In this document: positions 2,655 through 26,839 of the stretch, one piece after another
How positions within the stretch are numbered: the stretch's first letter is position 1
Layout of the letters: each line of letters opens with the position of its first letter
Notes under the pieces: model-generated
Told to the model about the DNA's origin: nothing
The model's input: the letters and a program-made list of their open reading frames with translations, nothing else
The model's database searches: none
Assembly (NCBI GenBank): GCA_038734275.1
Contig: JAVYOO010000002.1
Location: 1-34,811 of the forward strand
Source: Archaeoglobaceae archaeon
GTDB taxonomy: Archaea; Halobacteriota; Archaeoglobi; Archaeoglobales; Archaeoglobaceae
Length of the DNA stretch: 34,811 nucleotides
Direction: 5' to 3'
Program-made: the position numbers and the translations under genes

Positions 2655-3320
2655 GTGGATAAGGATATAAACATGTTGGACATAGTTTTTCTTGTGGTTA
2701 AAAAATTAAACTCCAAATTCCCACAAGAGGTTGTAGGACTTTACATCACAGGCTCTACAGCCAGAAAAGAAGCTGAGGAGTATTCCGATCTGGATGTAGT
2801 TGCCATTGTTGATGGAGATCTGGATCCTCGGGAAATCTCCAAAATCTTTGATGGAGATGTTCAGGTGAATGTTTTCAAGAGGGACGAGCTTAGAAGGGAA
2901 GTCAAAGAAGACCCGACAATAGCCCTTATGATCAAAGAGGGAATCCCGATAAAACCTCTCAGCAACATCGACGAGGATCTCAGCTTTACAAGAGAGGACA
3001 TTCTCAAGGCTATTTCCCGCACTGCCAGAGAATTGCTTCAACTGCTCAAGCGCTCTGGAGCGGTGGATTCCGGAGTTTTTCTTGCACTGATGTATGCCCG
3101 AAAGCTCTACACCCTTAGATGTATGCTTCTCGAAAAAACTGCAACAAAGCAGGGCTTCATCGGAGAATTGAAAGAGTATTACAGCGGGATCGAGGAGATT
3201 TACAGGCTTAAAAAGAGGATTGAGAAAGGAGAGATAGTTGAACTTAATGAAGATGAGTTTAAGAGATTTCTCAGAGCTGTGGTCGATTATGCCATTGATG
3301 TTCTGGGAACTTTACGTTAA
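2655..3320 (+). CDS. MNT-type nucleotidyltransferase-domain protein
   Basis: The protein is 221 residues from the GTG at 2655, or 215 from the ATG at 2673, which has the better upstream purine stretch (AAGGA) and may be the true start. The N-terminal half has the pol-beta-type nucleotidyltransferase signature: G33-S34 followed by D45-x-D47 in a GSTARKEAEEYSDLDVVAIV-type segment. The C-terminal half (about 110-221) is all-helical, rich in Lys/Glu and HEPN-like in character. It is therefore a one-chain nucleotidyltransferase plus helical domain rather than a separate MNT/HEPN toxin-antitoxin pair. A TATA-like TTATAAA lies at about 2607-2613. Substrate unknown. Confidence 0.8.
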   Translation: MDKDINMLDIVFLVVKKLNSKFPQEVVGLYITGSTARKEAEEYSDLDVVAIVDGDLDPREISKIFDGDVQVNVFKRDELRREVKEDPTIALMIKEGIPIKPLSNIDEDLSFTREDILKAISRTARELLQLLKRSGAVDSGVFLALMYARKLYTLRCMLLEKTATKQGFIGELKEYYSGIEEIYRLKKRIEKGEIVELNEDEFKRFLRAVVDYAIDVLGTLR

Positions 3321-3450: not shown

Positions 3451-3460
3451 CAGAAAAACC

Positions 3461-3509
3461 TTTTTAAATTTTTAAGGATTGATTTTTAAAGATATGTTTA
3501 TGAAGGTGA
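3461..3509 (+). promoter_or_regulatory. TATA box and ribosome binding site of the SsuABC/DUF364 operon
   Basis: A TTTTTAAATTTTTA element at 3461-3474 is a good archaeal TATA box. Transcription would start near 3490-3500 and leave a short leader. AAGGTGA at 3503-3509 is a strong ribosome binding site ending 4 nt before the ATG at 3514. Confidence 0.6.
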
Positions 3510-3513
3510 TTTT

Positions 3514-4452
3514 ATGAAATGGCAGAAAGTAGCAGTCTTCAGTGCTGGAGTAGTTGTCTCATTGCTCCTTTATAGCCTTTTCTTTTGGCAATCCGATAGC
3601 TTGGGCAGGGAAATTAAATTGGGTTTGGGTGTTGAATTCAACACTCATGCTACTCCGATCTGGGTAGCTGTTCACACAGGATTGTTCGAAAAGCATGGAA
3701 TAACTGTTGAGACTCTCTTGAAGTTCAGAACCGGTGCAGATCTAGCTTCTGCCCTTGCAAGAGGAGACGTAGATTTAGGAGTTGCTTGTTTGGGCCCTAT
3801 AGTCAATTTAGTGGACAGAGAAGTTGACGTTAAAATAGTAGGAAAGGTTCATAACCGCGGATATGCTTTGGTTGTAAATCCTGAAAGGATTAGGAGTCTT
3901 TCAGACCTGAATAACACAACGGTCTATTCTACTGGAATACCCAATCCGACGAACATTTTGCTGCTGAAGATTAAGGATTTATATGGCTTGGAATTTAACA
4001 TAAAACCCATTGGGGATCCAAATACTGTCCTGTCAATGCTAATCAGCGGACAAATAGATTCTGCAACGCTTCCAGAGCATTATTCGAGTGTCGCAGAAGA
4101 AAGGGGATTAAGAATTCTGGTGAGAGACAAAGATGTATGGCCTAACATGCCGGGTAGCTTTGTTATTGCGCGTGGAGATATTTTAAAAAATAATCCAGAA
4201 GTCGTTGCAAAATTTGTTAATATAATAAAGAGCAGTGTTAGGATTATCGAAGAAAATAGATCCTTTGCTTCGCATGCGTGTGCTTTGGAGCTCGGTATAA
4301 GCGATCAAACCGCTCTAAGGTCGATTGAGCAACTCGATTGGGATACTGAGTTAAACATCACAGAGATTCAGGAATACATAGACTTCATGTTCGCACATGG
4401 GCTAATTGAAAAGAAGATCAACGCAAGCGACATAGTGGTGAATTTGAGATGA
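3514..4452 (+). CDS. NMT1/SsuA/ThiY-type ABC substrate-binding protein
   Basis: This 312-residue extracytoplasmic binding protein begins with a short basic head and a hydrophobic segment at about residues 6-24. There is no lipobox Cys, so the segment may be an uncleaved anchor. The body has the periplasmic-binding type II pattern of the NMT1/SsuA/TauA/ThiY family: an opening like IKLGLG, PIWVAVHTGLFEKHGI, ALARGDVDLGVACLGP, then VNPERIRSLSDL and LISGQIDSATLPE. Family substrates range over sulfonates, nitrate, thiamine precursors and riboflavin, so the ligand here is open. It overlaps the permease by ATGA (4449-4452), showing translational coupling. It is the first gene of a four-gene operon. 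Confidence 0.85.
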   Translation: MKWQKVAVFSAGVVVSLLLYSLFFWQSDSLGREIKLGLGVEFNTHATPIWVAVHTGLFEKHGITVETLLKFRTGADLASALARGDVDLGVACLGPIVNLVDREVDVKIVGKVHNRGYALVVNPERIRSLSDLNNTTVYSTGIPNPTNILLLKIKDLYGLEFNIKPIGDPNTVLSMLISGQIDSATLPEHYSSVAEERGLRILVRDKDVWPNMPGSFVIARGDILKNNPEVVAKFVNIIKSSVRIIEENRSFASHACALELGISDQTALRSIEQLDWDTELNITEIQEYIDFMFAHGLIEKKINASDIVVNLR

Positions 4453-5216
4453 ACAGAAGAGGTCTAATCTCCATCCTCGCCTTCTTAGCGTGCTGGGAGA
4501 TATTGGCGAGATATTTTGTATCGATCCCGAATACAATTTTTCCACCATTTTCTCAGGTTTTTGTGAACTTTGCGAATCAAAAATTTTTGGAATCTCTGAT
4601 TGATAATTACCTATTAACCTTGATCAGATCTACGCTTGGCTTTATCTTAGGTTTAGCACTCGGACTGTTCACGGGATTAATTATAACACTAAGGCGTTCC
4701 TTTGACGACTATCTTAGCCCCATAGCCACCTTAGTGTTTTCAGTTCCTTCAGTAGCCTGGATACCAATCTTGATTGTATTGATAGGGATAAATGAATTTA
4801 CCTTGCCTTTATCTGCATCTTTTATGTGCACCTATCCCCCGATACTCTATGGCGTTGTTAACACGCTGAAAATGTTTGACAGAAACCAGCTCGATGTAGC
4901 GGACATTTACTGTGCCAAGCGGACAACCAAGTATAGGCTTGTTATACTTCCACAGTTAATCGGAAGACTCATTCCCATGATTAAGACTGAAGCGGTCATG
5001 GCTTGGAAGACTGTTTTTGTAGTGGAAATGGTGGTTTTGCCAAACGGAATAGGTTACCTCGCGCTCATATATGCCTCTACGCTCAGAATGGACAGCCTGA
5101 TTGCAGTGGTTTTGGTGTTGGCGTTGAGCCTGATCCTTATTAACTCTATTATTGGAAGAGTGGAAAAGAATTTCTCGCAAGTATTGGGTGGTGTCAATGA
5201 GTGGAATTTTGCTTAA
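4449..5216 (+). CDS. ABC transporter permease, SsuC/TauC-like
   Basis: The 255-residue protein has about six hydrophobic segments, including a first one near residues 5-22. It has the layout of binding-protein-dependent permeases of the sulfonate/nitrate/taurine group, for example FSVPSVAWIPILIVLIG. The cytoplasmic coupling loop is DVADIYCAKRTTKYRLVILPQ. It departs from the textbook EAA-x3-G loop but keeps the spacing and the LPQ ending. It forms the membrane channel for the upstream binding protein and the downstream ATPase. It starts inside the binding-protein stop (ATGA) and overlaps the ATPase gene by 20 nt. Confidence 0.88.
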   Translation: MNRRGLISILAFLACWEILARYFVSIPNTIFPPFSQVFVNFANQKFLESLIDNYLLTLIRSTLGFILGLALGLFTGLIITLRRSFDDYLSPIATLVFSVPSVAWIPILIVLIGINEFTLPLSASFMCTYPPILYGVVNTLKMFDRNQLDVADIYCAKRTTKYRLVILPQLIGRLIPMIKTEAVMAWKTVFVVEMVVLPNGIGYLALIYASTLRMDSLIAVVLVLALSLILINSIIGRVEKNFSQVLGGVNEWNFA

Positions 5217-6228
5217 GAACGTTAGCGTTTCTTATTCTGGCAGAAAAGTCCTTAGAGATTTAAACCTAAGTTTTCCAGAATCTGGGCTTTCGCTTGTCAT
5301 TGGTCCAAATGGTGCTGGTAAAACGACCTTATTGAAGGTTATAGCGGGATTGGTTAGCTACGAAGGGAACGTTTACATTGGGGGAAAAATCGTGGACAAA
5401 GTCCCACCAAACCGCAGAAAGATATCCTATGTGCCTCAAAACAGCAGTCTGATTCCCAATCTCAGGGTATGGGAAAACATCGCTTTGGGTCTCTTTGATC
5501 GCGGATACAGTTTTGAGCAAATTAGAGAGAGAGTTGAAACTTATGCGAAATTGTTAAACGTTGATAAACTGCTAAACAAATACCCTGCAACTTTGAGCGG
5601 TGGTGAAGCAAGAAGAGTTTCGATAGCTCGTGCATTGGCATTTGATAGTGATGTAATTCTGATGGATGAACCAGAAATCAGCATTGACTCTCATGCGTGG
5701 AGATTTATTCTTGATGCAATCTTTAAAATTGCAGAAGATGATAAAAGGTCACTAATACTAATCACTCACAATTTCGAAGATCTAATTCCATTCGCAAGAA
5801 ATCTATGCGTTCTATTCGATGGCAAAGTCGTATTTTCAGGTGATCCATCGCAAATAAATACAGAAAATCTTCCAATTGAAATCAAAACTTGGCTGGGAAC
5901 TGTGATTGAGGTTGACGAAGTTGTTAACAATGGGCACTTCTGCGAAGCTTTTCTTGATAGCCATAGAATTTATGCGGGCAGAATAAAAAGAGGTAGAAAA
6001 ATAAAAAGAGTCCTTGTCCTGCCGAAGTTCATAAGCATTGATAGCAATAAAGGATTGAAGGGGAAAGTGGTAAACGTTTTTAACCATGCGGACATTGCAA
6101 CGGTTTTTATCGATGTTGGAGGACAGGAAATAGTCTTTAGTTCAAGAGATCGATTTCAAAAGGGGGAAGAAATCACCATAAATATTGAAAAGGTTATTCC
6201 ACTATGTGACGATTATGAATCGCTATGA
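5197..6228 (+). CDS. ABC transporter ATPase with TOBE-like C-terminal domain
   Basis: The 343-residue protein starts at the ATG at 5197, preceded by a GGTGGTG ribosome-binding-like run; an earlier in-frame ATG at 5152 lies inside the permease and adds a non-family N-terminus. The ATPase core is complete: Walker A GPNGAGKTT at 36-44, Q-loop Q81, signature LSGGE at 133-137, Walker B ending in D157-E158-P159, and H191. Residues about 230-343 form an extra domain. Its last 50 residues (GLKGKVVNVFNHADIATVFI onward) look like a TOBE/OB segment, as in molybdate/tungstate- or sugar-type ATPases. This is unusual for an SsuB/TauB-type protein and may bind a regulatory ligand. It is followed by a 14-nt overlapping DUF364-like gene. 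Confidence 0.85.
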   Translation: MSGILLKNVSVSYSGRKVLRDLNLSFPESGLSLVIGPNGAGKTTLLKVIAGLVSYEGNVYIGGKIVDKVPPNRRKISYVPQNSSLIPNLRVWENIALGLFDRGYSFEQIRERVETYAKLLNVDKLLNKYPATLSGGEARRVSIARALAFDSDVILMDEPEISIDSHAWRFILDAIFKIAEDDKRSLILITHNFEDLIPFARNLCVLFDGKVVFSGDPSQINTENLPIEIKTWLGTVIEVDEVVNNGHFCEAFLDSHRIYAGRIKRGRKIKRVLVLPKFISIDSNKGLKGKVVNVFNHADIATVFIDVGGQEIVFSSRDRFQKGEEITINIEKVIPLCDDYESL

Positions 6229-6973
6229 TGAGATCTGCCGAAAATACTTCAGAAAGCTTGTTGATGAGAAGGGGATTAAAGAAGAGAACATTTCAAGCAT
6301 TGGCGGAAATGAAAGCACGCTAAATTACAGAACGGTCTCGCCAGAGTGGTTTATGTTGCCAAGCGAAGAATATGCTATTTCTAAGGGTGAGGAAAAGGTG
6401 ATGGAGTGCAATTTTAGAAATTCGAAAGCGCAAGTGTTCACAACAGTGCCGAGTAGCATTTCTCTCAAAGTTTCTGAAGTTCTGGAGTTGAATTTGCAAA
6501 ATATTGCATCTCGATCATTGTTTTATTGCGCTTTGAACGCTGTTATGGTGCACTATGGTCTTGTCAGCGGAACGGTGCACTGCAGAAAAGATTCACCATT
6601 GGAATGCGCAAAATTGCTGTTTGAAAAGCTGAAAAAGGTTTCAAAGCTCAGAAAAATACTTTTAATAGGTTATCAACCCGCATTCGCTGAAAAACTGTCC
6701 GAGAAATTTGATCTCTTCATTACGGATATGAATCCAAAAAATATAAACAGAAAGGTTCGAAATACCAAGATTTTAAGCCATCTGGAAAATCTGAACTTGA
6801 TACCAGAGGTCGATATAGTGCTCATAACAGGCAGTTCCCTGATAAACGGGACTTTTTGGGAACTCTATGAGTGTGCAATGGAAAATTCCAAGCCACTCAT
6901 TAGCTACGGCATTTCAGCTTCGGGAGCCTCAAAAATTTTGGGTATAGAGAGGCATTGCCCGCTATCTACCTGA
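6215..6973 (+). CDS. DUF364-like protein (putative heavy-metal-chelation/Rossmann family)
   Basis: The 252-residue soluble protein starts at the ATG at 6215, 14 nt before the ATPase stop; a TTG at 6185 would give a longer, less likely form. The N-terminal part resembles the DUF4213 half. The C-terminal part (about 130-250) reads as a Rossmann-like domain with KILLIGYQPAF, an internal VDIVLITGSSLINGT strand-turn, and SYGISASGAS near the end, the arrangement of DUF364 proteins. The family is described as putative heavy-metal chelation, with no defined reaction. Overlap with an ABC ATPase gene suggests it handles the imported compound or senses it. Assignment is from memory of the family pattern. 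Confidence 0.65.
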   Translation: MNRYDEICRKYFRKLVDEKGIKEENISSIGGNESTLNYRTVSPEWFMLPSEEYAISKGEEKVMECNFRNSKAQVFTTVPSSISLKVSEVLELNLQNIASRSLFYCALNAVMVHYGLVSGTVHCRKDSPLECAKLLFEKLKKVSKLRKILLIGYQPAFAEKLSEKFDLFITDMNPKNINRKVRNTKILSHLENLNLIPEVDIVLITGSSLINGTFWELYECAMENSKPLISYGISASGASKILGIERHCPLST

Positions 6974-6983
6974 TTAAAGTAAT

Positions 6984-8246
6984 TTAATTTTCATAATCTC
7001 TGCGTAGAATTACGTGTTCCATCAGCATCGCTACCAATACCCCTAAGACAAAACCATTGCCAATTATTGGTCTCAAGATCTCGGGAAAACTGGTCAAAAC
7101 TGATTCTGGAAGAAAGGTGACGATTATGCTCAGAAGCAATGGAAAGCCGATTACAAAGCCAGAAGCTGTGTCTTTAAACTTGATCATAGGAATTCCGACC
7201 GCGACTTGGGAGCACATTATATATAAAAATACACTGCCTATAACAACCTTTGGAATTGCCTCGATTAGAGAGATCACAAAGGGCGTGAACGCGAGGATCA
7301 ATAGGATAAATCCAGCGGGAACAAGGGCGTATCTTGATGCGCACTTCGTCGCTGAGATTATCCCGGGGCTCATGGAGTAGTTTACAGATCCTATAACTCC
7401 AAAAAATCCCGAAAGGATATTAGACAAACCAGTCAGCGTTACACCTCTCTTTGCTCGAAATTCAGTGTCTTCAAGTTTAAGAGTTCCTGCCAAGGAGTAT
7501 ATTGAACTCAGATCGTTGATGGCGAGGGCAAAAAAGCAGATCATGAAGGATATAATTACCTCTAACCTGAAAGAAGGTGTGATATTGATTTCGGAAAAGA
7601 CATTCAGGGGATCTGGGTTCAGAATTTCATAATGCTGAGGAAAGATTAGACTATAGACAGCAGAACCAAGAATGAGGCTCCATAGAATTAAGCTCGAATT
7701 CCAGAACCCCCTGAGCTTTTTGTTTAGGATAAAAAGCATGATAACGAACAAAATTGAAAAAGCGAAGTTGTAACCGGCATTAGGTGTATCCAAAGTGATC
7801 ATCTCCATTATAAGGGGCGATAGGGTAATTGCTACCAAGATTAAAACCACTGCAACTATATTCTCAGTGAAAAGCTTTCGCAAGAGGTTTAGCGATCCTG
7901 TAATGCCAAAAAAGAATATAACAACGCCTCCAATCGCAATTGCTGTGTATATTGTGCTAAAATCACTCCCCATGCTTGCATAAATCCCAGCGATAAGAAC
8001 GGAAGCGGGTCCAACTACGAGAGGCAATCTGTGACCAATAAAAAGCTGAGCGAGCATCGTTATTCCAGAAATTAGAAATATTTTTTGGATGTAACCAATT
8101 CTATCTGTTGGATTCTCAAATTGAATTTCCGCAACAATTCTACCGCCTATAATAAGAATTGCAGCTATTATTGCAAACCACTGCAAACTTAAGGCTATAA
8201 GCACCTTCTTGGGCGGGATTTCATCGAGTTGGTATTCAAGTTCCAC
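6984..8246 (-). CDS. NCS2-family (xanthine/uracil permease-like) transporter, divergent
   Basis: A 420-residue integral membrane protein begins at a GTG (8244-8246). It has the hydrophobic profile of the nucleobase-cation symporter-2 family. Family landmarks include LPLVVGPASVLIAGIYAS at about 74-91 and, in the second half, SNILSGFFGVIGSVNYSMSP followed by G and TKCASRY. By eye alignment to E. coli UraA, the substrate-binding glutamates appear replaced: Glu290 by Met292 and Glu241 by Ile243. The proton-linked His245 appears replaced by Ser247. The substrate may therefore not be uracil or xanthine. Its 3' end converges on the DUF364 gene with only 10 nt between. A minus-strand TATA box sits about 25 nt before the GTG, implying a leaderless message. 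Confidence 0.82.
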   Translation of the reverse strand: MELEYQLDEIPPKKVLIALSLQWFAIIAAILIIGGRIVAEIQFENPTDRIGYIQKIFLISGITMLAQLFIGHRLPLVVGPASVLIAGIYASMGSDFSTIYTAIAIGGVVIFFFGITGSLNLLRKLFTENIVAVVLILVAITLSPLIMEMITLDTPNAGYNFAFSILFVIMLFILNKKLRGFWNSSLILWSLILGSAVYSLIFPQHYEILNPDPLNVFSEINITPSFRLEVIISFMICFFALAINDLSSIYSLAGTLKLEDTEFRAKRGVTLTGLSNILSGFFGVIGSVNYSMSPGIISATKCASRYALVPAGFILLILAFTPFVISLIEAIPKVVIGSVFLYIMCSQVAVGIPMIKFKDTASGFVIGFPLLLSIIVTFLPESVLTSFPEILRPIIGNGFVLGVLVAMLMEHVILRRDYEN

Positions 8247-17771: not shown

Positions 17772-18020
17772 TCACCCGTAAGCGAACATCAGTATGAAGC
17801 TGATGACCAAGCCAAATATAACGATGGTCTCTGGGATAACTGTAAACAGCAGACCCAAGCCCAAGAAGCTCCTGTCTTCAGCAATTGCTCCAACCGCAGC
17901 AGCTCCAATACCGCTTTCACCAGCTCCAGCACCAATTCCAGCAAGTCCAACAGCCAAACCAGCCCCTATTGCAGCACATCCCTTTATGAACGCCTCATCA
18001 CTAATCATTGCCTCAACCAT
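17772..18020 (-). CDS. atpK: A-type ATP synthase proteolipid subunit K, second copy
   Basis: The 82-residue rotor-ring proteolipid has two hydrophobic helices. The first is rich in Gly/Ala (GAGLAVGLAGIGAGAGESG); the second carries the ion-binding carboxylate Glu64 in IPETIVIFGL. The ATG is at 18018-18020, one base after the stop of the 66-residue protein, with GGTGA as ribosome binding site inside that gene's last codons. It is almost identical to the copy at 18219-18467: five base differences over the shared 262 nt and one residue difference (Ser51 here, Gly51 there). It probably forms the ring together with, or instead of, the other copy. Confidence 0.95.
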   Translation of the reverse strand: MVEAMISDEAFIKGCAAIGAGLAVGLAGIGAGAGESGIGAAAVGAIAEDRSFLGLGLLFTVIPETIVIFGLVISFILMFAYG

Positions 18021-18033
18021 TCTATTCACCTCC
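17772..18033 (-). repeat. Direct repeat copy B (atpK second copy plus leader)
   Basis: This segment matches 18219-18480 at an offset of 447 nt. It covers the whole K gene plus 13 nt of leader including the ribosome binding site. I count five mismatches, at 17775, 17814, 17832, 17870 and 17895. Matching stops abruptly upstream of the ribosome binding site. Confidence 0.95.
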
Positions 18034-18222
18034 AAGCAATGCATCCACCCAGCTTACAGTATCGCTAAATCGATATCCAAAAAGAAGAATCAGGATTGCG
18101 ATACTCGCCCCCAATGCGAGTCTGAAAGTCGATACCAGCCAGTAGTATCTAACGAACCTCTCTACATTCTTCTCGCTACCGAGCTTCTCCGCAAGCCTTA
18201 ACACGAATTTCTCGCCGATCAT
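18022..18222 (-). CDS. 66-residue single-TM protein inside the ATPase operon, unknown
   Basis: The protein is encoded between the two K genes. The N-terminal 27 residues are charged and amphipathic (LRLAEKLGSEKNVERFVRYY). One hydrophobic helix spans about 34-50 (ALGASIAILILLFGY), and the tail is short and acidic, ending in LLGGE. The ATG overlaps the first K gene stop as ATGA (18219-18222), and its last codons contain the GGTGA site used by the second K gene. Such tight coupling argues it is translated in step with the ring subunits. I do not recognise a family. An assembly factor or small accessory subunit of the membrane ring is plausible inference, as with AtpI/AtpZ in bacterial F-type operons, but there is no visible homology. 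Confidence 0.8.
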   Translation of the reverse strand: MIGEKFVLRLAEKLGSEKNVERFVRYYWLVSTFRLALGASIAILILLFGYRFSDTVSWVDALLGGE

Positions 18223-18467
18223 CCGTAAGCGAACATCAGTATGAAGCTGATGACCAAGCCGAATATAACGATGGTCTCCGGGATAACTGTAAACAGCAGA
18301 CCCAAGCCCAAGAAGCCCCTGTCTTCAGCAATTGCTCCAACTGCAGCAGCTCCAATACCGCTTTCACCAGCTCCAGCACCAATTCCAGCAAGTCCAACAG
18401 CCAAACCAGCCCCTATTGCAGCACATCCCTTTATGAACGCCTCATCACTAATCATTGCCTCAACCAT
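18219..18467 (-). CDS. atpK: A-type ATP synthase proteolipid subunit K, first copy
   Basis: This 82-residue proteolipid is the first of two copies. It has the same two-helix hairpin and Glu64 as the other copy, with Gly51 in place of Ser51 in the polar loop (EDRGFLG). The ATG at 18465-18467 follows GGTGAATAGA, and the ribosome binding site lies in the subunit I 3' end (I ends at 18469). Its stop codon overlaps the ATG of the 66-residue protein. Four of the five base differences from the second copy are synonymous. Confidence 0.95.
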   Translation of the reverse strand: MVEAMISDEAFIKGCAAIGAGLAVGLAGIGAGAGESGIGAAAVGAIAEDRGFLGLGLLFTVIPETIVIFGLVISFILMFAYG

Positions 18468-18480
18468 TCTATTCACCTCC
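18219..18480 (-). repeat. Direct repeat copy A (atpK first copy plus leader)
   Basis: Partner of the segment at 17772-18033. Identity runs from the K stop codon to CACCTCC on the plus strand at 18474-18480, then diverges into subunit I coding sequence. Confidence 0.95.
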
Positions 18481-20562
18481 TTCCTCTTCTATAAACTTCT
18501 TAACCCTACCAAATGGTGTGTATTCTCTACCACCACCCTCAAAAAACTTCGTGAAGAACTCTACATAGTGCAATCGAAGCGACTGCAAACCAGGATCGAG
18601 TATGCCGAGCAGGAAGTTTCCAAAATGACCTATAAGCATTATAACTATCGCAAGTGGAAGTATAGCCATTCCCGGCTCTAAGCCAATTTTGAGCGAGAGA
18701 TAGTTCACAACGAAGGCTATGTAAACTGAAGAAAGGCCTATAGCAAGCAGTCGGGCGTAGCTTATGATCTGACCAAACCATGTGAGCAGTTCGACCGCCA
18801 TTATTGCTCCAAAGATTCCCATTTTTGGAATTTCAGCCTTCAGGAAGATTACGAACCATATCAGTATTAGTGGCAAGGTAGCGAGGTAGAAGTAGTTGAA
18901 TCCTGCCTGCCAGCCATCTACAAGTCCCGGAATAGGCAAAGGCACAGCTCTTGCTTCAGCAACGGTATTTCCGTAAACAAAGAGGTTCTTTGGGAACAAC
19001 TCTCCGAATCCGTTTGGTGGTGGAGAAGTGAAAATTCCGAGATTGTATGAGAATCCAAATATAAGGCAAACAAGCCCAAGGACTCCGAAGATCCAGCATC
19101 CCTTTTCAAGAATTGCCTCTTTAATGCCATGCTCCACGTATACATTGTAGAAGCCCATCGAGAAGCCCCATAGCATCTTGAACATACCAACCATGAGCAC
19201 TATGAAAAGCAGGGCTTTAACACCGAATTCTTCAACTCTGTCAAAGAGCGGATGTCCGTGATTGAAAGCATATAGCCCCGCAAGAAAGTCGCCGATGAAG
19301 TGGACTTCTGCGGGATTCTCTGTTCCGGGGATCTTGAACGGTCCGAAGAATTCACCGTAGATAAAGCCAAAGAATATCGAAGTTATACCGCATGCCAGAC
19401 CTATGTTGAGCAGTTTTTGCCAGCCTTCGGTCTTGAAGATCATCTTTAGATACAGCGAAACAGCAAGTATCAGCAGTCCGTATCCCATGTCTCCAAGCAT
19501 TAGTCCAAAGAAGAGCGGGAAGAAGATCGCCATTATCGTTGTTGGATCTATCTCTTTGTATTTTGGAATGGCATAGGTTTTTGAAAGCACTTCGAAGTTC
19601 TTTGCAAATCCCGGATTGTTGAGCTTTGTTGGTGGCATCTCATGTTCTTCAAATTTGAGCTGTTCTACTACAATTCTTTTTTCTTCCAACTCCTTTTTGA
19701 ATTTATCAAAATTATTGGCCGGCACATAGCCGACGATTACGAAAGTGTGCTTTGAGACGAGGGTTTTAAGAGGAAGTTCCGCCTTCTCGACTTCAGAGGA
19801 CAGGTATTCTTCGATTGCCAAGAGCAGTTCAGATTCTTTGACCTTTAGTTCTTCTATTTCGATTTCAATCTTCTTTTTCTTCTCAGAAAGCTCTTCTTTC
19901 ATCTTTGTGAGCTCGGAAATTCTTGCTTCAAGGTCGACATCTGGCACTGGCAATTCTTTGTATCCAAATCCCTGCAGGATCCTATAAACCTCATCACCGT
20001 GTTCTGATTTAACGAAAATTGCAATCACGAATTGATCTTCAAATTTCTTCAGCACAAAATCGAATTGAGTTGTAATTTTTTCAATTTCAGGAATCGGATT
20101 CTCTTTTACAAGACCTACAAAGCATTTTATGCTCCTGTATCCTTTTAGAAGTTTTGGAGGTATTTCAAGAACTTTTAGAGGTTCAATCGTCGAAAATTCC
20201 GATTCAATGGATTTAAGAGTTTCATTTATTTTTCTGAGTTCGTCAATTCGTTTTCCTATATCCTCCTGGTATTCGGTTAGCTTTTTACTTAGCTTTTCTT
20301 CAATTTCTCTTCTTTTAAATTTCTTTTTTGGTGAAAACTTTGTTGGATCAAGTTTCAGATGGGAAATATAGCTTCTTAGCTGTAGTAAGTTTCTTGAAAT
20401 CTGTCCAGCTCTTTCCATAGGTGTTCCTACCTTGAAATAATCGGTTTCTAAAGGATTTTCTATATGGATAAGATTCATCCTGTACAATAGCTCTGAAGCC
20501 ACTTCGAGTTGATCTCTGGAACCCACAACCGCGACTTTAACCATCTTTTCAGGCCTGAGCAT
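18469..20562 (-). CDS. atpI: A-type ATP synthase subunit I (membrane a subunit)
   Basis: The 697-residue stator subunit carries the ion half-channels. Residues 1 to about 330 are a cytoplasmic arm with long Lys/Glu-rich coiled coils. From about 340 on there are seven to eight membrane helices, starting near IMAIFFPLFFGLMLGDMGYG. The essential Arg facing the ring is in ISYARLLAIGLSSVYIAF near residue 610. The ATG is at 20560-20562 with GGTGG 3 nt upstream; it overlaps subunit H by 14 nt. The tail ends in VKKFIEEEGGE, and its last codons hold the ribosome binding site of the first K gene. Confidence 0.95.
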   Translation of the reverse strand: MLRPEKMVKVAVVGSRDQLEVASELLYRMNLIHIENPLETDYFKVGTPMERAGQISRNLLQLRSYISHLKLDPTKFSPKKKFKRREIEEKLSKKLTEYQEDIGKRIDELRKINETLKSIESEFSTIEPLKVLEIPPKLLKGYRSIKCFVGLVKENPIPEIEKITTQFDFVLKKFEDQFVIAIFVKSEHGDEVYRILQGFGYKELPVPDVDLEARISELTKMKEELSEKKKKIEIEIEELKVKESELLLAIEEYLSSEVEKAELPLKTLVSKHTFVIVGYVPANNFDKFKKELEEKRIVVEQLKFEEHEMPPTKLNNPGFAKNFEVLSKTYAIPKYKEIDPTTIMAIFFPLFFGLMLGDMGYGLLILAVSLYLKMIFKTEGWQKLLNIGLACGITSIFFGFIYGEFFGPFKIPGTENPAEVHFIGDFLAGLYAFNHGHPLFDRVEEFGVKALLFIVLMVGMFKMLWGFSMGFYNVYVEHGIKEAILEKGCWIFGVLGLVCLIFGFSYNLGIFTSPPPNGFGELFPKNLFVYGNTVAEARAVPLPIPGLVDGWQAGFNYFYLATLPLILIWFVIFLKAEIPKMGIFGAIMAVELLTWFGQIISYARLLAIGLSSVYIAFVVNYLSLKIGLEPGMAILPLAIVIMLIGHFGNFLLGILDPGLQSLRLHYVEFFTKFFEGGGREYTPFGRVKKFIEEEGGE

Positions 20563-21113: not shown

Positions 21114-21896
21114 CTAATTAAAATTTCCTTTTAAAGGTCTTAATGGTAGCACGAAAGTAGATCCATTGCTTTTTATTACTTCTACCTCAACACCATATAC
21201 ACTTTTTATGTTCTCTGGAGTCAAGACTTGGCTTGGTTCTCCAACTGCGAATATTTTTCCGTCTCTCATCATAATGATTTTGTCAGAGTATCTTGAGGCA
21301 AGATTTAGATCGTGCATAGCCATTATTGCAGACATCTCTCTCTTTTTAACAACCTCTTTTATTATGTCTAAAACTTCAAGTTGAACCTTTATGTCGAGGT
21401 TGCTCGTGGGCTCGTCAAGAAGGAGAATTTCTGGTTCTTGGGCCAATGCCCTTGCTATAAAAACCCTCTGTTGTTGACCACCGCTGAGCTCGTTTATGTC
21501 TCTCATTGAAAATTCTTCAAGGTTCAGCATTTTTATGACTTCCACGACCCTATCTATGTCCTCTTCGCTAGTTCTCCAAGTTATATGTGGTTTTCTTCCC
21601 ATGAGTATTACCTCGAAAACAGTAGCTGGAAAACTATATTTTGCTCCTTGTGGGATGTAACCTATCTTCTTTGCAATTTCAGACTGAGATAACTGTCTCA
21701 AATCTTTTTCATCTATAAATATCGTCCCTTTATTTGGTCTGAGTATTCTATCGATGCATTTTATAAGTGTAGACTTTCCAGCACCATTTGGACCGAGAAC
21801 AGATACGATCTCAGACTTTCTAACTTCGAAACAAATATTTTCTAATACTGGAACGCTTGAATAACTAAATTCAAGATCAATGACTCTTATCTTCAT
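21114..21896 (-). CDS. FecE/BtuD-type ABC transporter ATPase
   Basis: The 260-residue ATPase belongs to the iron-siderophore/cobalamin uptake group. It has Walker A GPNGAGKST at 35-43, GYIPQG (Q-loop), signature ELSGGQQQR, Walker B EILLLDEPTSNLD and the switch His in MAMHDLNLASRY. The ATG at 21894-21896 follows GGTGA 4 nt upstream, and it starts 4 nt after the permease stop. It is the last gene of the long import operon and powers the single permease shared by three binding proteins. Substrate (iron chelate, corrinoid, heme or oxyanion) cannot be told. Confidence 0.92.
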   Translation of the reverse strand: MKIRVIDLEFSYSSVPVLENICFEVRKSEIVSVLGPNGAGKSTLIKCIDRILRPNKGTIFIDEKDLRQLSQSEIAKKIGYIPQGAKYSFPATVFEVILMGRKPHITWRTSEEDIDRVVEVIKMLNLEEFSMRDINELSGGQQQRVFIARALAQEPEILLLDEPTSNLDIKVQLEVLDIIKEVVKKREMSAIMAMHDLNLASRYSDKIIMMRDGKIFAVGEPSQVLTPENIKSVYGVEVEVIKSNGSTFVLPLRPLKGNFN

Positions 21897-21900
21897 AATC

Positions 21901-22998
21901 TCACCAATAGTCCTTTTTCTTTCTTAGCAGAATATACAGAAACATTGGCCCGCCTAAGAAAGCGGTTACCACTCCCACAGGTAGAACGATTGGAGCTATT
22001 ATCGTTCTAGCAATTGTATCGCAAATAAGAAGTAAAGCTCCACCAAAAAAACCTGAAGCGGGGACGAGATATCGATTATCTCCGCCTATTATAATCCTCG
22101 TAATATGCGGGGCGACCAAGCATATAAAACCAATTGTTCCAACAAAACTGACTATTGTCGCTGTCAAAAGACAAGAGAGTAGCATAATGAATATTCTTGT
22201 TTTTTCTGGATTTATTCCTAAGCTCTTAGCAGTATCATCTCCAGCACCCATTATTATGTTAACATCCCAAGCTTTTATCATTAAAATAGGAGAGATTAAG
22301 ATTAATGCTACAAATGCAACGATCACTGCATCCCACTGAGCTCTACCGAGGTCGCCCACAGTCCAAAAGTATGCTGCTTTAACCGCATCGCTCTCTGCGA
22401 AATACATTAAAACTGTGGTTACCGCACTAAAAATGTACATCATTGCGATTCCAGCAAGGACCATTGTTTCTGGAGTAGCTTTCTTGAGTCTTGTAAGTCC
22501 AAGAATTACAAAGGTTGGAATTAAAGAAAACACGAATGCATTTCCAACAATCAAATATTTCCCAAAGATTATACCTTTCGTGAGTATTATCGCTATTGCT
22601 GCTCCTAGTGCAGCCCCAGAAGCAATGCCTAAGGTGTATGGTGTTGCTAAGGGATTTCTGAGGATCCCCTGAGTCATAGCTCCCGCAATGGCAAAGCCCA
22701 TCCCAGCGAGAACTGCAAGGAGAATTCTTGGTAGTCTTAGATTCCAAACTACCATTTCTTTTGTCGTTTCTGGATTCCAAGAGAAGCCTGTTAAAATGGA
22801 ATTCATGAATCCATTCAAAACTATTCCATAAACTTCGATCGGGTGAATCTGGTATGAGCCAAGTGTTACTGCTAAACCTGCAAATATGGCAATTAGCAAA
22901 ATAGAAAAAATTATAAAAGTGATTTTTCGACCTATAAACTTCTTATATTCTCTTTTTATTCTCTCCACGTCTTTGTTAGCCTGCAATCCTGCTCTCAT
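21901..22998 (-). CDS. FecCD/BtuC-type ABC transporter permease
   Basis: The 365-residue permease has about ten membrane helices and a basic N-terminal tail of about 25 residues. Family landmarks are LRLPRILLAVLAGMGFAIAG followed by AMTQGILRNPLATPYTLGIA, then GTIGFICLVAPHITRIIIGG and PVGVVTAFLGGPMFLYILLR. It works as a homodimer. The ATG is at 22996-22998, two bases after the stop of the nearest binding-protein gene. Only one permease is encoded for three upstream receptors. Confidence 0.93.
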   Translation of the reverse strand: MRAGLQANKDVERIKREYKKFIGRKITFIIFSILLIAIFAGLAVTLGSYQIHPIEVYGIVLNGFMNSILTGFSWNPETTKEMVVWNLRLPRILLAVLAGMGFAIAGAMTQGILRNPLATPYTLGIASGAALGAAIAIILTKGIIFGKYLIVGNAFVFSLIPTFVILGLTRLKKATPETMVLAGIAMMYIFSAVTTVLMYFAESDAVKAAYFWTVGDLGRAQWDAVIVAFVALILISPILMIKAWDVNIIMGAGDDTAKSLGINPEKTRIFIMLLSCLLTATIVSFVGTIGFICLVAPHITRIIIGGDNRYLVPASGFFGGALLLICDTIARTIIAPIVLPVGVVTAFLGGPMFLYILLRKKKDYW

Positions 22999-23000
22999 GT

Positions 23001-24278
23001 TTATCTTCCGTTTGGATGTAGTTCAGGGTGATATACGTAAATACCCTGGGTTCTAACGTTCATTTTAGAAGAAGTAAATTTGTCTATGTATTCCTGGAGA
23101 ACGTCCAGCGGTTCTATGTCGCTGAACAAGTCCGGGTGGAACCACTTGGCATGGAAGAGCAATCCTACGACGTCATTAAGTCTTGAGGTTATATCCCCGT
23201 GTATAATATAGATCTTCTTATTTTGAACTGCAGGGGTATTTTCAATCCCTGGAATTGAAATTATTTCATTGTAATAGTCTTTTAGAGCACTTAAATCGTT
23301 TGTTTCAAAACCACCACTTCTCGAATTAAGGCCAGATGCTTGCCCTATTATTATCTCGGGTTGCTGAGATATTATCCACTCGTAATCGACCGCATAGTAA
23401 CCGGGACTATAGGGGCTGAGAATTCTTGCGATGCTTGGGTTTAAGTCAGCTCCGACGTTTATTCCTCCAGTAAATTCAACAAGTTGGTGTAATCCAGTAT
23501 TGGAAGCGACTGTTAATCTTCCCGATGTTATTACTCTTCCGGGACCATAGTCTATAAAGACCCTTGGCTTACTCTCAACTGATTTGATTCTTTCTTTAAC
23601 AATATTGAAATAATGTTTTCTCCACTCAATAAAATCTCTTGCCCTTTCTTCCTTACCAAGCAACTCTCCCAACTTGAGCATTTCCTCCTCTATAGTTTCG
23701 GGCTTGTAAAAATCTAAGCGGACAACAGTTATCTTTGGCTCAAGCTGAGCTTCGAGCGCATCATATCCGGGATTGTATACTCCTGGAACGTAGGCAATTA
23801 CCACATCTGGGTCAAGTTTAAAGATCAACTCGAAGTTCGGATTGTTACCCGGACCTATCAATGGTAGATTTAGATATTCTGGGAGATAGTTTGGTTTCAC
23901 AGTCGCGGTTTCTATGCCTACTACGAGATTTGAAGCGCCGAGAACTCTTATAGCGTCAGCTGCAGATGGGTTCAAAGGAATTATTTTTCTTATGGGTTTA
24001 TAGAAAACTTTCTCTCTTCCGTCGGACATGTAAATTTTTTTAGGATTCCCATTCCAGTAAACGTAAACATGCGAAGCATCTCTAAGCCATTCAACGTTTA
24101 TTTTTTCCCCTTTATAGGGCTCATCGAGCATGTAGGCAAGAATCGCGTCGCTCAACTCTTCCCTATCAAGGTATCCGTCACTGAAAAACAAGTTCCTATA
24201 TTTCTCTGATGTTGAAGCGAGTGTTGGGAATATCGATAGTGTTAAAATTAAAAAAACTAAAAATAAAAATTTTTTCAT
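23001..24278 (-). CDS. BtuF/FepB-type substrate-binding protein with dockerin-like N-terminus (paralogue 3)
   Basis: The 425-residue secreted protein has an N-terminal signal sequence (about 1-22, LFLVFLILTLSIFPTLAS) without a lipobox Cys. Residues about 25-80 form the shared module: FFSDGYLDREELSDAILAYM, then EWLRDASHVYVYWNGNPKKI. This resembles a degenerate two-helix dockerin/EF-hand unit. The remainder is the cobalamin/iron-type binding fold: KIIPLNPSAADAIRVLGA, LDPDVVIAY, VVRLDFYKPETIEEEM and FTGGINVGAD. There is no C-terminal anchor. It is closest to the permease and the most diverged of the three paralogues. A GAGGAAGTGATC ribosome binding site precedes the ATG. Confidence 0.88.
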   Translation of the reverse strand: MKKFLFLVFLILTLSIFPTLASTSEKYRNLFFSDGYLDREELSDAILAYMLDEPYKGEKINVEWLRDASHVYVYWNGNPKKIYMSDGREKVFYKPIRKIIPLNPSAADAIRVLGASNLVVGIETATVKPNYLPEYLNLPLIGPGNNPNFELIFKLDPDVVIAYVPGVYNPGYDALEAQLEPKITVVRLDFYKPETIEEEMLKLGELLGKEERARDFIEWRKHYFNIVKERIKSVESKPRVFIDYGPGRVITSGRLTVASNTGLHQLVEFTGGINVGADLNPSIARILSPYSPGYYAVDYEWIISQQPEIIIGQASGLNSRSGGFETNDLSALKDYYNEIISIPGIENTPAVQNKKIYIIHGDITSRLNDVVGLLFHAKWFHPDLFSDIEPLDVLQEYIDKFTSSKMNVRTQGIYVYHPELHPNGR

Positions 24279-24331
24279 ACGATCACTTCCTCAAACAGCT
24301 TTTTTGATTAGATTTAGATCTGTAAAAATTC

Positions 24332-25630
24332 TCATATGCATATCGCGGGATAAGTGAATGACTTGTGGTTAAGAACGGCTTTCGAAACTCCGAGAAGGTC
24401 AACGTATTCTTCAAAGGCCTTGCATGGGTCTAAGTCTGCAAATAGCTCTGGATAAAACCACTTAGCCAACGCTACGAGAGCGGATGGATAGTTTGGTGTT
24501 ATTGCCCAATCGTTTGTAATAACATAAACCCTATCATTACGCACAGCATTTGTTAAGTTAAAAACGTTCTTAATGTCATTGTAATAAGCTTTGACTGCGC
24601 CATCGTCAGTTCTTTCCCATGGTCTTAATGCGCCTTGACCAGAAATTGTGCCCATAGCTCTTCCAACTATTATATCCGGGTTATTCTCTAGCACGAATTC
24701 TACCGAAATGTCGTTATATTCTGTATTATAGGTGGGATTAAAAGGTATGTTCCCCGCTCCTATGTTTTTACCCCCAGCGAGCTCTACCAATCCATGGGCT
24801 GGATGTCCCAGACCTATGCCAAGCCTCGTATTGCTTCTTCCGTAACTGCCTTCGGAGCTCTCTACAAATACCTTTAATTTCTCATTTTCTGGTATCTTTG
24901 AGACCCTCTCAAGCACGATATTAATGTATCTATCATGCCATTCCAAATATTTCTGAGCCCTTTTCATTACTTCTTGATCGAAAAGCGATGCAAAGTCCAA
25001 GACTTCTTTTTTCATAGCATCGATTCCAACATAACCTTTTCCAATTGGATCTCCAGTGAACCCGACCCTCATTATGGATATAACTCTGTCAGGGAGATTA
25101 GAAAGTTCTTCAATTGTTCCTACAGCAGGATACCAACCATATGCTACAACCACGTCTGGATCCAATTCTATAATTTTTTCCAAGTTCGGATTGTCTCCTG
25201 AGCCAACGCTTGGCTTTGTGTGTAAGATCGGATATCTGTTTTTCTGAATCGCAAATGTGTCTCTAACACCTACTACTTTATCCTCCAAGCCCAATATCAT
25301 TAACATCTCTGCATGCTGGTGGTGATAAGTTACAATTTTCTTAATAGGCTTGTAAATTTTCAATTGGTTTCCATTAACGTCCTCAAACGTCTTCGGATTT
25401 CCACCCCAATATACGTAAACGTAGCTTGCGTCTCTCAGCCATTCAAGCTTCAAATTTTTCCCTTGATAATCTTCGTTGAGCATGTAAGCTGTTATTGAGT
25501 TTAAAAGCTCCTCGATATCTATCCTCTCGTCTGAAAAGAACAACTCTATGTATTCCCTGCTGGTAGAGGCAGAAGAAATTCCAAAAGACAACGGTATTAA
25601 TAAAAGTAATAATATAAATGTATACTTCAT
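24332..25630 (-). CDS. BtuF/FepB-type substrate-binding protein with dockerin-like N-terminus (paralogue 2)
   Basis: The 432-residue second paralogue. The signal sequence is about 1-22 (FILLLLLIPLSFGISSAS), with no lipobox. The N-terminal module FFSDERIDIEELLNSITAYM and EWLRDASYVYVYWGGNPK occupies about 27-80. The binding fold follows: IVTYHHQHAEMLMILGLEDK, LDPDVVVAYGW and LAGGKNIGAGN. Its ligand pocket should differ, because the segments lining it (for example the HHQH near residue 103) are not shared with the other copies. It shares an 89-nt block with paralogue 1 that is identical at DNA level. GGTGATCGAAC precedes the ATG. Confidence 0.88.
   Translation of the reverse strand: MKYTFILLLLLIPLSFGISSASTSREYIELFFSDERIDIEELLNSITAYMLNEDYQGKNLKLEWLRDASYVYVYWGGNPKTFEDVNGNQLKIYKPIKKIVTYHHQHAEMLMILGLEDKVVGVRDTFAIQKNRYPILHTKPSVGSGDNPNLEKIIELDPDVVVAYGWYPAVGTIEELSNLPDRVISIMRVGFTGDPIGKGYVGIDAMKKEVLDFASLFDQEVMKRAQKYLEWHDRYINIVLERVSKIPENEKLKVFVESSEGSYGRSNTRLGIGLGHPAHGLVELAGGKNIGAGNIPFNPTYNTEYNDISVEFVLENNPDIIVGRAMGTISGQGALRPWERTDDGAVKAYYNDIKNVFNLTNAVRNDRVYVITNDWAITPNYPSALVALAKWFYPELFADLDPCKAFEEYVDLLGVSKAVLNHKSFTYPAICI
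25398..25486 (-). repeat. 89-nt identical block in paralogue 2 (partner 26613-26701)
   Basis: This 89-nt stretch is identical, base for base, to 26613-26701. It encodes the YMLNEDYQGKNLKLEWLRDA-type core of the dockerin-like module plus the following YVYVYWGG. The surrounding coding sequence is much less similar. Confidence 0.93.
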
Positions 25631-25636
25631 GTTCGA

Positions 25637-26839
25637 TCACCATCCAAAACTCTTGGAGTAGAAGAAAGCTCCTTGAGTTTTGACGTCAAAGTTTATTCCA
25701 AGGAATTTGTCGATGAATTCTTGATGAATTGCCACTGGATCTAAATCACCGTAATTTTCTGGATACAACGCCTTCGCTACTGCAACAAGACTTACTGGAG
25801 CAGAGGGGCTGGTGCCGATTTTACTTGAAAGAACATAAATCCTCTCATTTTTGATTGCTGGGATCTCTTCAGAATAGCTCTGGAGTGCATTCAAAACACC
25901 ATTATAATCTTTTATCACTTCAGTTTCATCATCGACTTCATAACCGCCAGCTGAGCTCCAGCGAAGTATAACTTCTGGTTTCCAATTTAATAGCTCTTCC
26001 ACCGTTACATCAAAGTAACCATTACGCCCTTCAAGGACGTTTTTACCTCCAGCCATAACTGATAACGTGAACAACCCGGTTCCTTCTGCAAACGCACGTA
26101 GAGGAGCCTTTGTCCCGCCAGTTGTGTAGACCTTAACTTTTTTATCCTCTTCTGGAATTCTTGACGTTACCAGGTTTACATAATATTCAAACCACTTTAT
26201 GTATTCTTCAGCATACTTCTCAGCATCTAAAATATATCCGAGCTTTTTCATTTCTTCTTTCATTGTATCGAGGATATAAAAATCGAGTCTAACGACTGTA
26301 ATTCCTGTTCCAGCAAGCTGATTCTCCAATTTGTCAGAAGTTGGCCATCGAACGTATGATAAAACTAAATCTGGAGCCATTTTGACGATCTCTTCTATAT
26401 TCGGATCGTTCCATAGACCCACAGAAGGTTTTTGACTTATCTCAGGAAGCATTTTGTAAGAACTCTTTACAGAAGTGCTAACTCCCACCACTTTGTCCTT
26501 AGAGCCAAGTATTTGCACAGCCAGTCCAGAATCGCTGTTTAGAACTACAATACTCTTAACTGGCTTGTATATAACCACTTCACTACTGGCTGAATCAATT
26601 ATCCTTTTCGGTTTTCCACCCCAATATACGTAAACGTAGCTTGCGTCTCTCAGCCATTCAAGCTTCAAATTTTTCCCTTGATAATCTTCGTTGAGCATGT
26701 AGGCGCTTAATACATTCAAAAGTTCATCCTTAGTTATTGTATTATCATCAAAGAATATTTCTATGTAGTCTTTGCTTGTAATGGCACTTGCTGTTGAAAT
26801 CAGTAATGCAATAAAAATAAATAAAAGCCCAGCTTTCAC
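25637..26839 (-). CDS. BtuF/FepB-type substrate-binding protein with dockerin-like N-terminus (paralogue 1)
   Basis: The 400-residue first paralogue starts at a GTG (26837-26839) that overlaps the stop of the surface-protein gene; GGAGGTG lies 7 nt upstream, a very strong ribosome binding site. The signal sequence is LLFIFIALLISTASA (to about residue 19), with no lipobox. The N-terminal module is IEIFFDDNTITKDELLNVLS followed by EWLRDASYVYVYWGG. The binding domain includes SIVVLNSDSGLAVQILGSKD, MAPDLVLSYVRW, VVRLDFYILDTMKEEM and MAGGKNVLEG. It has no membrane anchor beyond the leader. Confidence 0.88.
   Translation of the reverse strand: MKAGLLFIFIALLISTASAITSKDYIEIFFDDNTITKDELLNVLSAYMLNEDYQGKNLKLEWLRDASYVYVYWGGKPKRIIDSASSEVVIYKPVKSIVVLNSDSGLAVQILGSKDKVVGVSTSVKSSYKMLPEISQKPSVGLWNDPNIEEIVKMAPDLVLSYVRWPTSDKLENQLAGTGITVVRLDFYILDTMKEEMKKLGYILDAEKYAEEYIKWFEYYVNLVTSRIPEEDKKVKVYTTGGTKAPLRAFAEGTGLFTLSVMAGGKNVLEGRNGYFDVTVEELLNWKPEVILRWSSAGGYEVDDETEVIKDYNGVLNALQSYSEEIPAIKNERIYVLSSKIGTSPSAPVSLVAVAKALYPENYGDLDPVAIHQEFIDKFLGINFDVKTQGAFFYSKSFGW
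26613..26701 (-). repeat. 89-nt identical block in paralogue 1 (partner 25398-25486)
   Basis: Identical in all 89 positions to the block in paralogue 2. The two copies lie 1215 nt apart, which suggests recent gene conversion or duplication limited to this module. Confidence 0.93.

What the first reader, a model, noticed from the sequence alone, without database searches (positions are those of the whole stretch)
3514..6973. SsuABC/ThiY-like transporter fused genetically to a DUF364-like gene and a TOBE-tailed ATPase
The four genes overlap head to tail (4, 20 and 14 nt). The ATPase has an extra TOBE-like domain of about 110 residues that SsuB/TauB/ThiZ-type ATPases usually lack, and the last gene belongs to a family proposed to chelate heavy metals. 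The combination suggests uptake of a metal-binding small molecule or an oxyanion complex, with ligand sensing by the ATPase tail, rather than ordinary sulfonate or nitrate import.
Basis: partly seen in the sequence, partly recalled or inferred. Interest (0 to 1): 0.6.

Follow-up and report, generated by a model that had tools for sequence, protein, structure and literature searches.

The report
Probable molybdenum uptake operon in archaeon
Four overlapping archaeal genes encode an importer that looks like a sulfonate transporter, but its relatives in many anaerobes sit beside nitrogenase and molybdenum-enzyme genes, so it most likely brings in molybdenum and passes it to a cysteine-bearing companion protein of unknown function.

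Summary
Window 3514-6973 holds four same-strand genes overlapping by 4, 20 and 14 nt: an NMT1/SsuA-type binding protein, a permease, an ATPase with a ~110-residue C-terminal tail, and a DUF364 protein. The tail is predicted all-beta, of MalK/ModC TOBE type. The combination is not unique. It is a conserved module in anaerobic Archaea and Bacteria, and the tail is present in 28 of 58 related ATPases. In this archaeon's family it occurs only here (55 genomes); its nearest relatives are in Desulfurococcales, which suggests horizontal transfer. Neighbourhoods point to molybdenum: nif genes (18 of 80 loci), or MoeA, MocA, YqeB, XdhC, Mo-hydroxylases, ModD and the regulator Tfx. Nif or Mo genes occur in 37/80 loci against 1/33 control NMT1 loci; DUF364 in 38/80 against 0/33. 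The same DUF364 subfamily, with invariant H-C, C and C residues, also sits beside ModABC, formate dehydrogenase and nif. The closest solved structure to the tail family is the ATPase of a molybdate importer (ModC, 3d31). The binding protein has an invariant, partly clade-specific pocket signature. Best reading: an unrecognised class of molybdenum (possibly tungsten) ABC importer with a dedicated cytosolic partner. Ligand binding is untested.

The parts
3459..3478 (+). AT-rich TATA-like stretch (CCTTTTTAAATTTTTAAGG) 35-55 nt before the first gene; probable archaeal promoter
   Evidence: Read from sequence; inference only, not tested.
3514..4452 (+). Substrate-binding protein, NMT1/SsuA fold, N-terminal membrane anchor, 312 aa
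   Evidence: Pfam NMT1_2 7.6e-18; SsuA_fam 2.9e-28 but below its cut-off; AF2 pLDDT 94.8, best PDB match SsuA 3ksx TMt 0.85 at 19% identity; 71/71 invariant E41, H45, C92, H113, E188, W209, S215.
4449..5216 (+). Permease, BPD_transp_1, 255 aa
   Evidence: Pfam 1.2e-16; nearest solved permeases: nitrate permease 8w9m and CmpB 9u9z, ~5e-7.
5197..6228 (+). ABC ATPase with C-terminal OB/TOBE-like tail, 343 aa
   Evidence: ABC_tran 1.3e-29; best NCBIfam WtpC 179 bits, below the 440-bit cut-off; AF2 pLDDT 91.8; full-length Foldseek matches to GlcV, MalK, PotA, CysA, ModC.
5860..6225 (+). Tail domain of the ATPase (residues 222-343), all-beta, TOBE/Mop-like
   Evidence: Family profile: best PDB match 3d31 ModC 5.1e-15, then ModG, ModE and Mop molybdate-binding proteins among the hits; TOBE in 17/26 tails; profile without window finds it at 6.2e-9.
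6215..6973 (+). DUF364 (PF04016) protein, 252 aa, with H122-C123, C131 and C248
   Evidence: PF04016 6.1e-11; PDB 3npg 3.6e-5; H-C, C, C identical in 45/45 subfamily members, not shared as a set by two outgroup DUF364 proteins.

Best explanation
A molybdenum uptake and handling operon. The membrane-anchored binding protein captures a molybdenum oxyanion (molybdate, or thiomolybdate in sulfidic water; tungstate not excluded). The permease and ATPase import it. The TOBE-like ATPase tail probably senses cytosolic molybdate and slows transport, as in ModBC. The DUF364 protein, through its conserved His/Cys set, receives, stores or chemically prepares the metal for cofactor assembly. Shown here by computation: gene order, families, fold of SBP and tail, conservation signatures, genomic association with molybdenum and nif genes. 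Inferred: the ligand, the sensing role and the action of DUF364.
For: (1) The related SBP-permease-ATPase set lies in nif clusters or next to Mo-cofactor, Mo-enzyme and Tfx genes in 37/80 loci, against 1/33 loci of other NMT1 transporters in the same phylum (Fisher 2e-6); DUF364 38/80 against 0/33 (9e-8). After clustering at 60% identity: 12 of 18 lineages have Mo/nif, 12 of 18 DUF364. (2) The same DUF364 subfamily sits beside an unrelated transporter type, ModABC (L027, L030, L034), and beside nif, FdhD, Mo-pterin oxidoreductases and Tfx, so molybdenum is the common denominator. (3) The tail profile's best solved relative is the M. acetivorans ModC; Mop, ModE and ModG follow. (4) The SBP signature is clade-specific: E41, C92 and S215 71/71 and Y117 70/71, against 0/24 controls; the clade is separate on the tree, 99/98. 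(5) The host encodes Mo/W enzymes: two AOR-type and three PF00384 matches. (6) Tfx precedes and binds a Mo-enzyme operon and responds to Mo/W (PMC3087415); DUF364 was already linked to Mo, W and V transporters (PMC2954201).
Against: No binding data. The host also has a WtpA/ModA-like system, and PF13531 proteins occur in all module-bearing genomes searched, so this importer is not an obvious replacement. The host has no NifDK; its one PF00148 protein lies in an F430-type cluster. No Mo gene lies next to the operon in the window itself. About half of the loci show no Mo gene within reach, many being short contigs. Three of the four query sequences come from nif-linked or near-nif relatives, and the neighbour families were chosen because they recur, which favours the result. 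The window tail lacks a direct TOBE hit.
Confidence: 0.72

Rival explanations
1. The importer carries an organic ligand needed for molybdenum cofactors (homocitrate, a pterin piece, or a secreted Mo-binding chelator) and DUF364 releases or processes it.
For: NMT1-fold proteins mostly bind small organic anions; the closest folds are SsuA, TauA, thiamine and formylaminopyrimidine binders. NifV lies in several loci. The published proposal for DUF364 is condensation or hydrolysis of a chelator (PMC2954201).
Against: The same DUF364 subfamily pairs with ModABC, whose ligand is the bare oxyanion. Nif and Mo-hydroxylase loci share no obvious organic ligand. No chelator biosynthesis genes were seen among the recurring neighbours that were annotated.
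Confidence: 0.13
2. A tungstate- or vanadate-specific importer rather than a molybdenum one.
For: The host has AOR-type enzymes that usually hold tungsten; the best NCBIfam match of the ATPase is tungstate WtpC, below cut-off. DUF364 is also reported near W and V transporters (PMC2954201), and RPA1385 of R. palustris binds vanadate (PMC3223731).
Against: Many relatives sit in nif clusters and beside Mo-hydroxylase maturation genes (YqeB, XdhC, MocA), which use molybdenum. RPA1385 belongs to another SBP family, COG3221.
Confidence: 0.1
3. An ordinary sulfonate, taurine, nitrate or thiamine-precursor importer that happens to lie beside molybdenum genes.
For: Nearest folds and family names are SsuA and TauA; nearest solved permeases are nitrate and bicarbonate ones.
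Against: Scores lie far below the SsuA, TauA and SsuC cut-offs; the pocket signature is absent from other NMT1 proteins; the association with Mo genes and DUF364 recurs over many phyla against a matched control; ATPases of this class often carry TOBE tails.
Confidence: 0.05

Closest known systems
ModABC / WtpABC / TupABC molybdate-tungstate ABC importers
   Same: Three-part importer, link to Mo enzymes and nif, ATPase with TOBE tail (in about half of relatives), same companion DUF364 subfamily beside ModABC in the same phylum.
   Different: The binding protein is NMT1/SsuA-type (PF13379/PF09084), not PF13531; ATPase far below WtpC/ModC equivalog cut-offs. The host has a separate PF13531 system.
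SsuABC / TauABC / NrtABC (NMT1 superfamily importers)
   Same: Same folds of binding protein and permease.
   Different: About 19% identity to the nearest solved SBPs, a separate clade with its own invariant pocket residues, ATPase of the TOBE-bearing class, Mo/nif context and DUF364.
DUF364 (PF04016; Dhaf4260 3l5o, and 3npg)
   Same: PF04016 match in the C-terminal half; association with metal ABC transporters was already noted by Miller et al. 2010 (PMC2954201).
   Different: Belongs to a subfamily with invariant H-C, C and C-terminal C; Pfam does not recognise the DUF4213 half in the window protein.
M. acetivorans ModBC with trans-inhibiting ModC tail (3d31)
   Same: Tail profile match 5e-15 over the whole tail; lowest rmsd (6.4 A) of the tailed PDB hits listed.
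   Different: The window tail is divergent; binding of oxyanion by the tail not shown.

Membership tests
NMT1/SsuA-type substrate-binding proteins | Pfam NMT1/NMT1_2 over cut-off and type-II SBP fold | tested here: met
   65.7 and 54 bits against 24.7 and 20.5; TMt 0.85 to SsuA.
SsuA (sulfonate) or TauA (taurine) families of NCBIfam | NCBIfam cut-off | tested here: not met
   SsuA_fam 98.9 against 163.5; taurine 34.5 against 304.
DUF364 / PF04016 | Match over the gathering score | tested here: met
   42.6 bits against 23.
DUF364 / PF04016 | DUF4213 (enolase-N-like) N-terminal half | tested here: inconclusive
   No Pfam hit in the window protein, but relatives align over residues 4-251; fold not predicted.
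TOBE-bearing ABC ATPases (MalK/ModC/PotA class) | C-terminal OB/TOBE-type beta domain after the ATPase domain | tested here: met
   AF2 tail all-beta, full-length matches to that class; homologous tails hit TOBE 17/26; the window tail alone has no TOBE hit.
ModABC / WtpABC molybdate-tungstate importers | PF13531-type binding protein and equivalog scores | tested here: not met
   SBP is NMT1-type; WtpC 179 against 440 and ModC 130 against 285 bits.
Molybdenum importers by function | Binds and transports molybdate or tungstate | not testable with these tools
   Only context, conservation and tail homology.
Trans-inhibited ModC | Tail binds cytosolic molybdate and locks the transporter | not tested
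   Sequence-profile relation to 3d31 only.

The most novel reading that the evidence does not exclude
A separate, so far unnamed class of molybdenum importer that arose from the sulfonate/thiamine-precursor binding-protein family and uses a Cys/His/Glu pocket to take up thiomolybdate, the form of molybdenum expected in sulfidic anoxic water, with a DUF364 partner that strips or hands over the metal.
Probability: 0.2. Interest if true: 0.75.

Novelty: new variant of a known kind. Interest (0 to 1): 0.55.

Why it matters
How anaerobes in sulfidic water obtain scarce molybdenum for nitrogenase and Mo-enzymes is an open question, and the Mo/W importers I know of use other binding-protein families. 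If right, a widely misannotated 'sulfonate/nitrate' transporter, found in ANME archaea, Desulfurococcales, Chloroflexota and syntrophic bacteria, becomes a testable molybdenum importer, and a DUF364 subfamily gains a candidate metal site and pathway.

Tried and rejected
Complementarity test (module present, ModA/WtpA absent): PF13531 is found in all 41 module genomes, only weakly in a few such as G408, G423 and G429, so it gives little support. Nitrogenase as the reason for the operon in this host: rejected, no NifDK. Reading the host's single PF00148 protein as nitrogenase: rejected, it sits with Mur-ligase-like and CobB/CobQ-like genes as in F430 synthesis. Vertical inheritance in the host family: rejected, absent from the other family genomes searched. 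A SET domain hit to the tail (PF00856, below its cut-off) was treated as chance. Literature searches for NMT1-type molybdate transporters and for NMT1 with nifH found nothing; that covers open-licence papers only.

Full report
OBSERVATION. The four genes are real and at the stated coordinates: 3514-4452, 4449-5216, 5197-6228 and 6215-6973, all on the + strand, with overlaps of 4, 20 and 14 nt. Pfam assigns NMT1_2/NMT1, BPD_transp_1, ABC_tran and DUF364. NCBIfam gives only sub-threshold hits: SsuA_fam for the binding protein, SaoP and SsuC for the permease, and WtpC (tungstate) as best for the ATPase, aligned through residue 321 and so into the tail.

DISTRIBUTION. The window lies in a 99% complete archaeal genome of 1.73 Mb. 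In 55 genomes of its family no other has an ATPase of this kind (E<=1e-60), and none of the other genus members searched has a related DUF364. A scan of 84,980 species genomes with a four-sequence SBP alignment returned 80 loci, from Desulfurococcales, other Thermoproteota, ANME and Methanosarcinales archaea, Chloroflexota, Bacillota, Thermodesulfobacteriota and others. The closest full-length matches (44-53% over the best segment) are in Desulfurococcales. L052 has the identical order SBP-permease-tailed ATPase-DUF364. The tree puts the window with Desulfurococcales (95/83) inside a module clade that is separate from 24 other NMT1 proteins (99/98). Horizontal transfer from a Desulfurococcales-like donor is the simplest reading (inference).

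CONTEXT. Eighteen of 80 loci hold NifH/D/K. In ANME-2 and Methanosarcinales the order is nifH...nifD-nifK-SBP-permease-ATPase-DUF364 (L028, L088, L094, L096). Outside nif the recurring neighbours are MoeA, a MobA/MocA-type transferase, YqeB, XdhC, Mo-hydroxylase large subunits, a MoCF_biosynth protein, ModD and the regulator Tfx, and once FdhD. Tfx precedes and binds the Mo formylmethanofuran dehydrogenase operon and its transcription responds to tungstate (PMC3087415). As a control I took 33 windows (median 19.9 kb, against 11.5 kb for the test loci) around other NMT1 proteins of the same phylum: Mo or nif in 1/33 against 37/80 (p 2e-6), DUF364 in 0/33 against 38/80 (p 9e-8). By SBP lineage at 60% identity, 12 of 18 have Mo or nif and 12 of 18 have DUF364. 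The bias to note: the neighbour families were chosen because they recur, three of the four query sequences came from nif-linked relatives, and the control is drawn from one archaeal phylum while the test loci span many phyla.

DUF364. The nearest relatives in the phylum stand beside ModABC (L027, L030, L034; L035 has ModA and L032 a ModB-like permease), nif or NifV (L024, L025, L027, L028, L030), Mo-pterin oxidoreductases (L026, L029, L031, L034, L037), FdhD (L031) and Tfx (L037, L039). Two unrelated transporter types therefore share one partner, and molybdenum is what they have in common. All 45 aligned members carry H122-C123, C131 and C248 (window numbering); the two more distant DUF364 proteins that were aligned lack the set, though those alignments are weak. 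This is a plausible metal site. Miller et al. 2010 had already noted DUF364 next to Fe, W, V and Mo transporters and proposed a role in chelation (PMC2954201), so the general link is known. The NMT1-type transporter and the Cys/His subfamily I did not find described.

ATPASE TAIL. AlphaFold2 gives a confident model (mean pLDDT 91.8) whose residues 235-330 are all beta. Foldseek aligns the full length with GlcV, MalK, PotA, CysA and ModC; 3d31 (ModC) has the lowest rmsd of the tailed hits listed (6.4 A). A profile of 26 tails finds 3d31 at 5e-15, with ModG, ModE and Mop molybdate-binding proteins among the next hits alongside sugar and polyamine ATPases. Seventeen of 26 tails hit Pfam TOBE; the window's does not. 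It is joined to the family mainly through its Desulfurococcales relatives (6.2e-9 with them, 0.014 without). Related ATPases are bimodal in length: 30 short (222-265 aa) and 28 long (333 aa and up). In most nif loci with a complete ATPase it is the short form, so the tail is optional for the core function. Trans-inhibition as in ModBC is an inference by analogy.

BINDING PROTEIN. Model pLDDT 94.8; closest folds are SsuA and TauA at 18-20% identity. Invariant in 71/71 module members: V40, E41, H45, G74, C92, P95, H113, G116, E188, W209, G214, S215. E41, C92 and S215 occur in 0/24 control NMT1 proteins, as does Y117 (70/71 in the module). In the model these residues lie at strand ends and loops where type-II binding proteins usually hold ligand. 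A pocket with Cys, two His and two Glu is unusual for a sulfonate binder, but does not by itself identify the ligand.

HOST. G000 has two AOR-family and three PF00384 matches, so it needs Mo or W. It also has a WtpA/ModA-like operon. The operon here would then be a second, perhaps high-affinity or differently specific, route.

VERDICT. Real, conserved and probably a molybdenum importer with a dedicated cytosolic partner; a new variant of a known kind (Mo/W ABC importer built on another binding-protein family). Ligand, sensing and DUF364 chemistry remain to be shown.

Noticed in passing
L135 8169-14602 (G000:C1, about 156-163 kb): The host has a second NMT1-type ABC transporter directly followed by a Mur-ligase-like, a PF00148 and a CobB/CobQ-like gene, as in coenzyme F430 synthesis; perhaps a nickel or F430-precursor importer. 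PF00148 homologues of similar length occur in other genus members.
   Followed up: partly
control NMT1 binding proteins (L135-L170): In 15-19 of 24 control NMT1 proteins of this phylum the positions of M212, G214 and S215 are H, C and C, a different, possibly metal-binding signature.
   Followed up: no
L026 5119-6554, L029 6665-8100: The H-C/C/C DUF364 protein sits next to a second gene (in L026 a canonical DUF4213-DUF364 protein) near a molybdopterin oxidoreductase; L029 also has a FecCD-type permease.
   Followed up: partly
L024 7946-8647 and other nif loci: A class-I glutamine-amidotransferase-like protein of about 233 aa recurs next to DUF364 in ANME nif loci; role unknown.
   Followed up: no
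L053 4052-5674: A 541-aa protein without any Pfam or NCBIfam match lies between the permease and a ModD gene; homologues in five Desulfurococcales loci.
   Followed up: partly
6984-8246, - strand: NCS2-type permease convergent with the operon; it also scores over the cut-off of MFS_MOT1 (molybdate transporter), though far more strongly as a purine permease.
   Followed up: no
17794-18681: Two + strand ORFs share about 80 nearly identical starting residues, so the DNA here is a near-perfect direct repeat of about 240 bp, within the ATP synthase gene region; possibly a duplicated membrane-ring subunit on the - strand.
   Followed up: no
21114-26839, - strand: ABC transporter genes (ATPase and FecCD-like permease by eye) followed by three tandem paralogous binding-protein-like genes.
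   Followed up: no
2655-3320: Nucleotidyltransferase-domain protein upstream of the operon.
   Followed up: no
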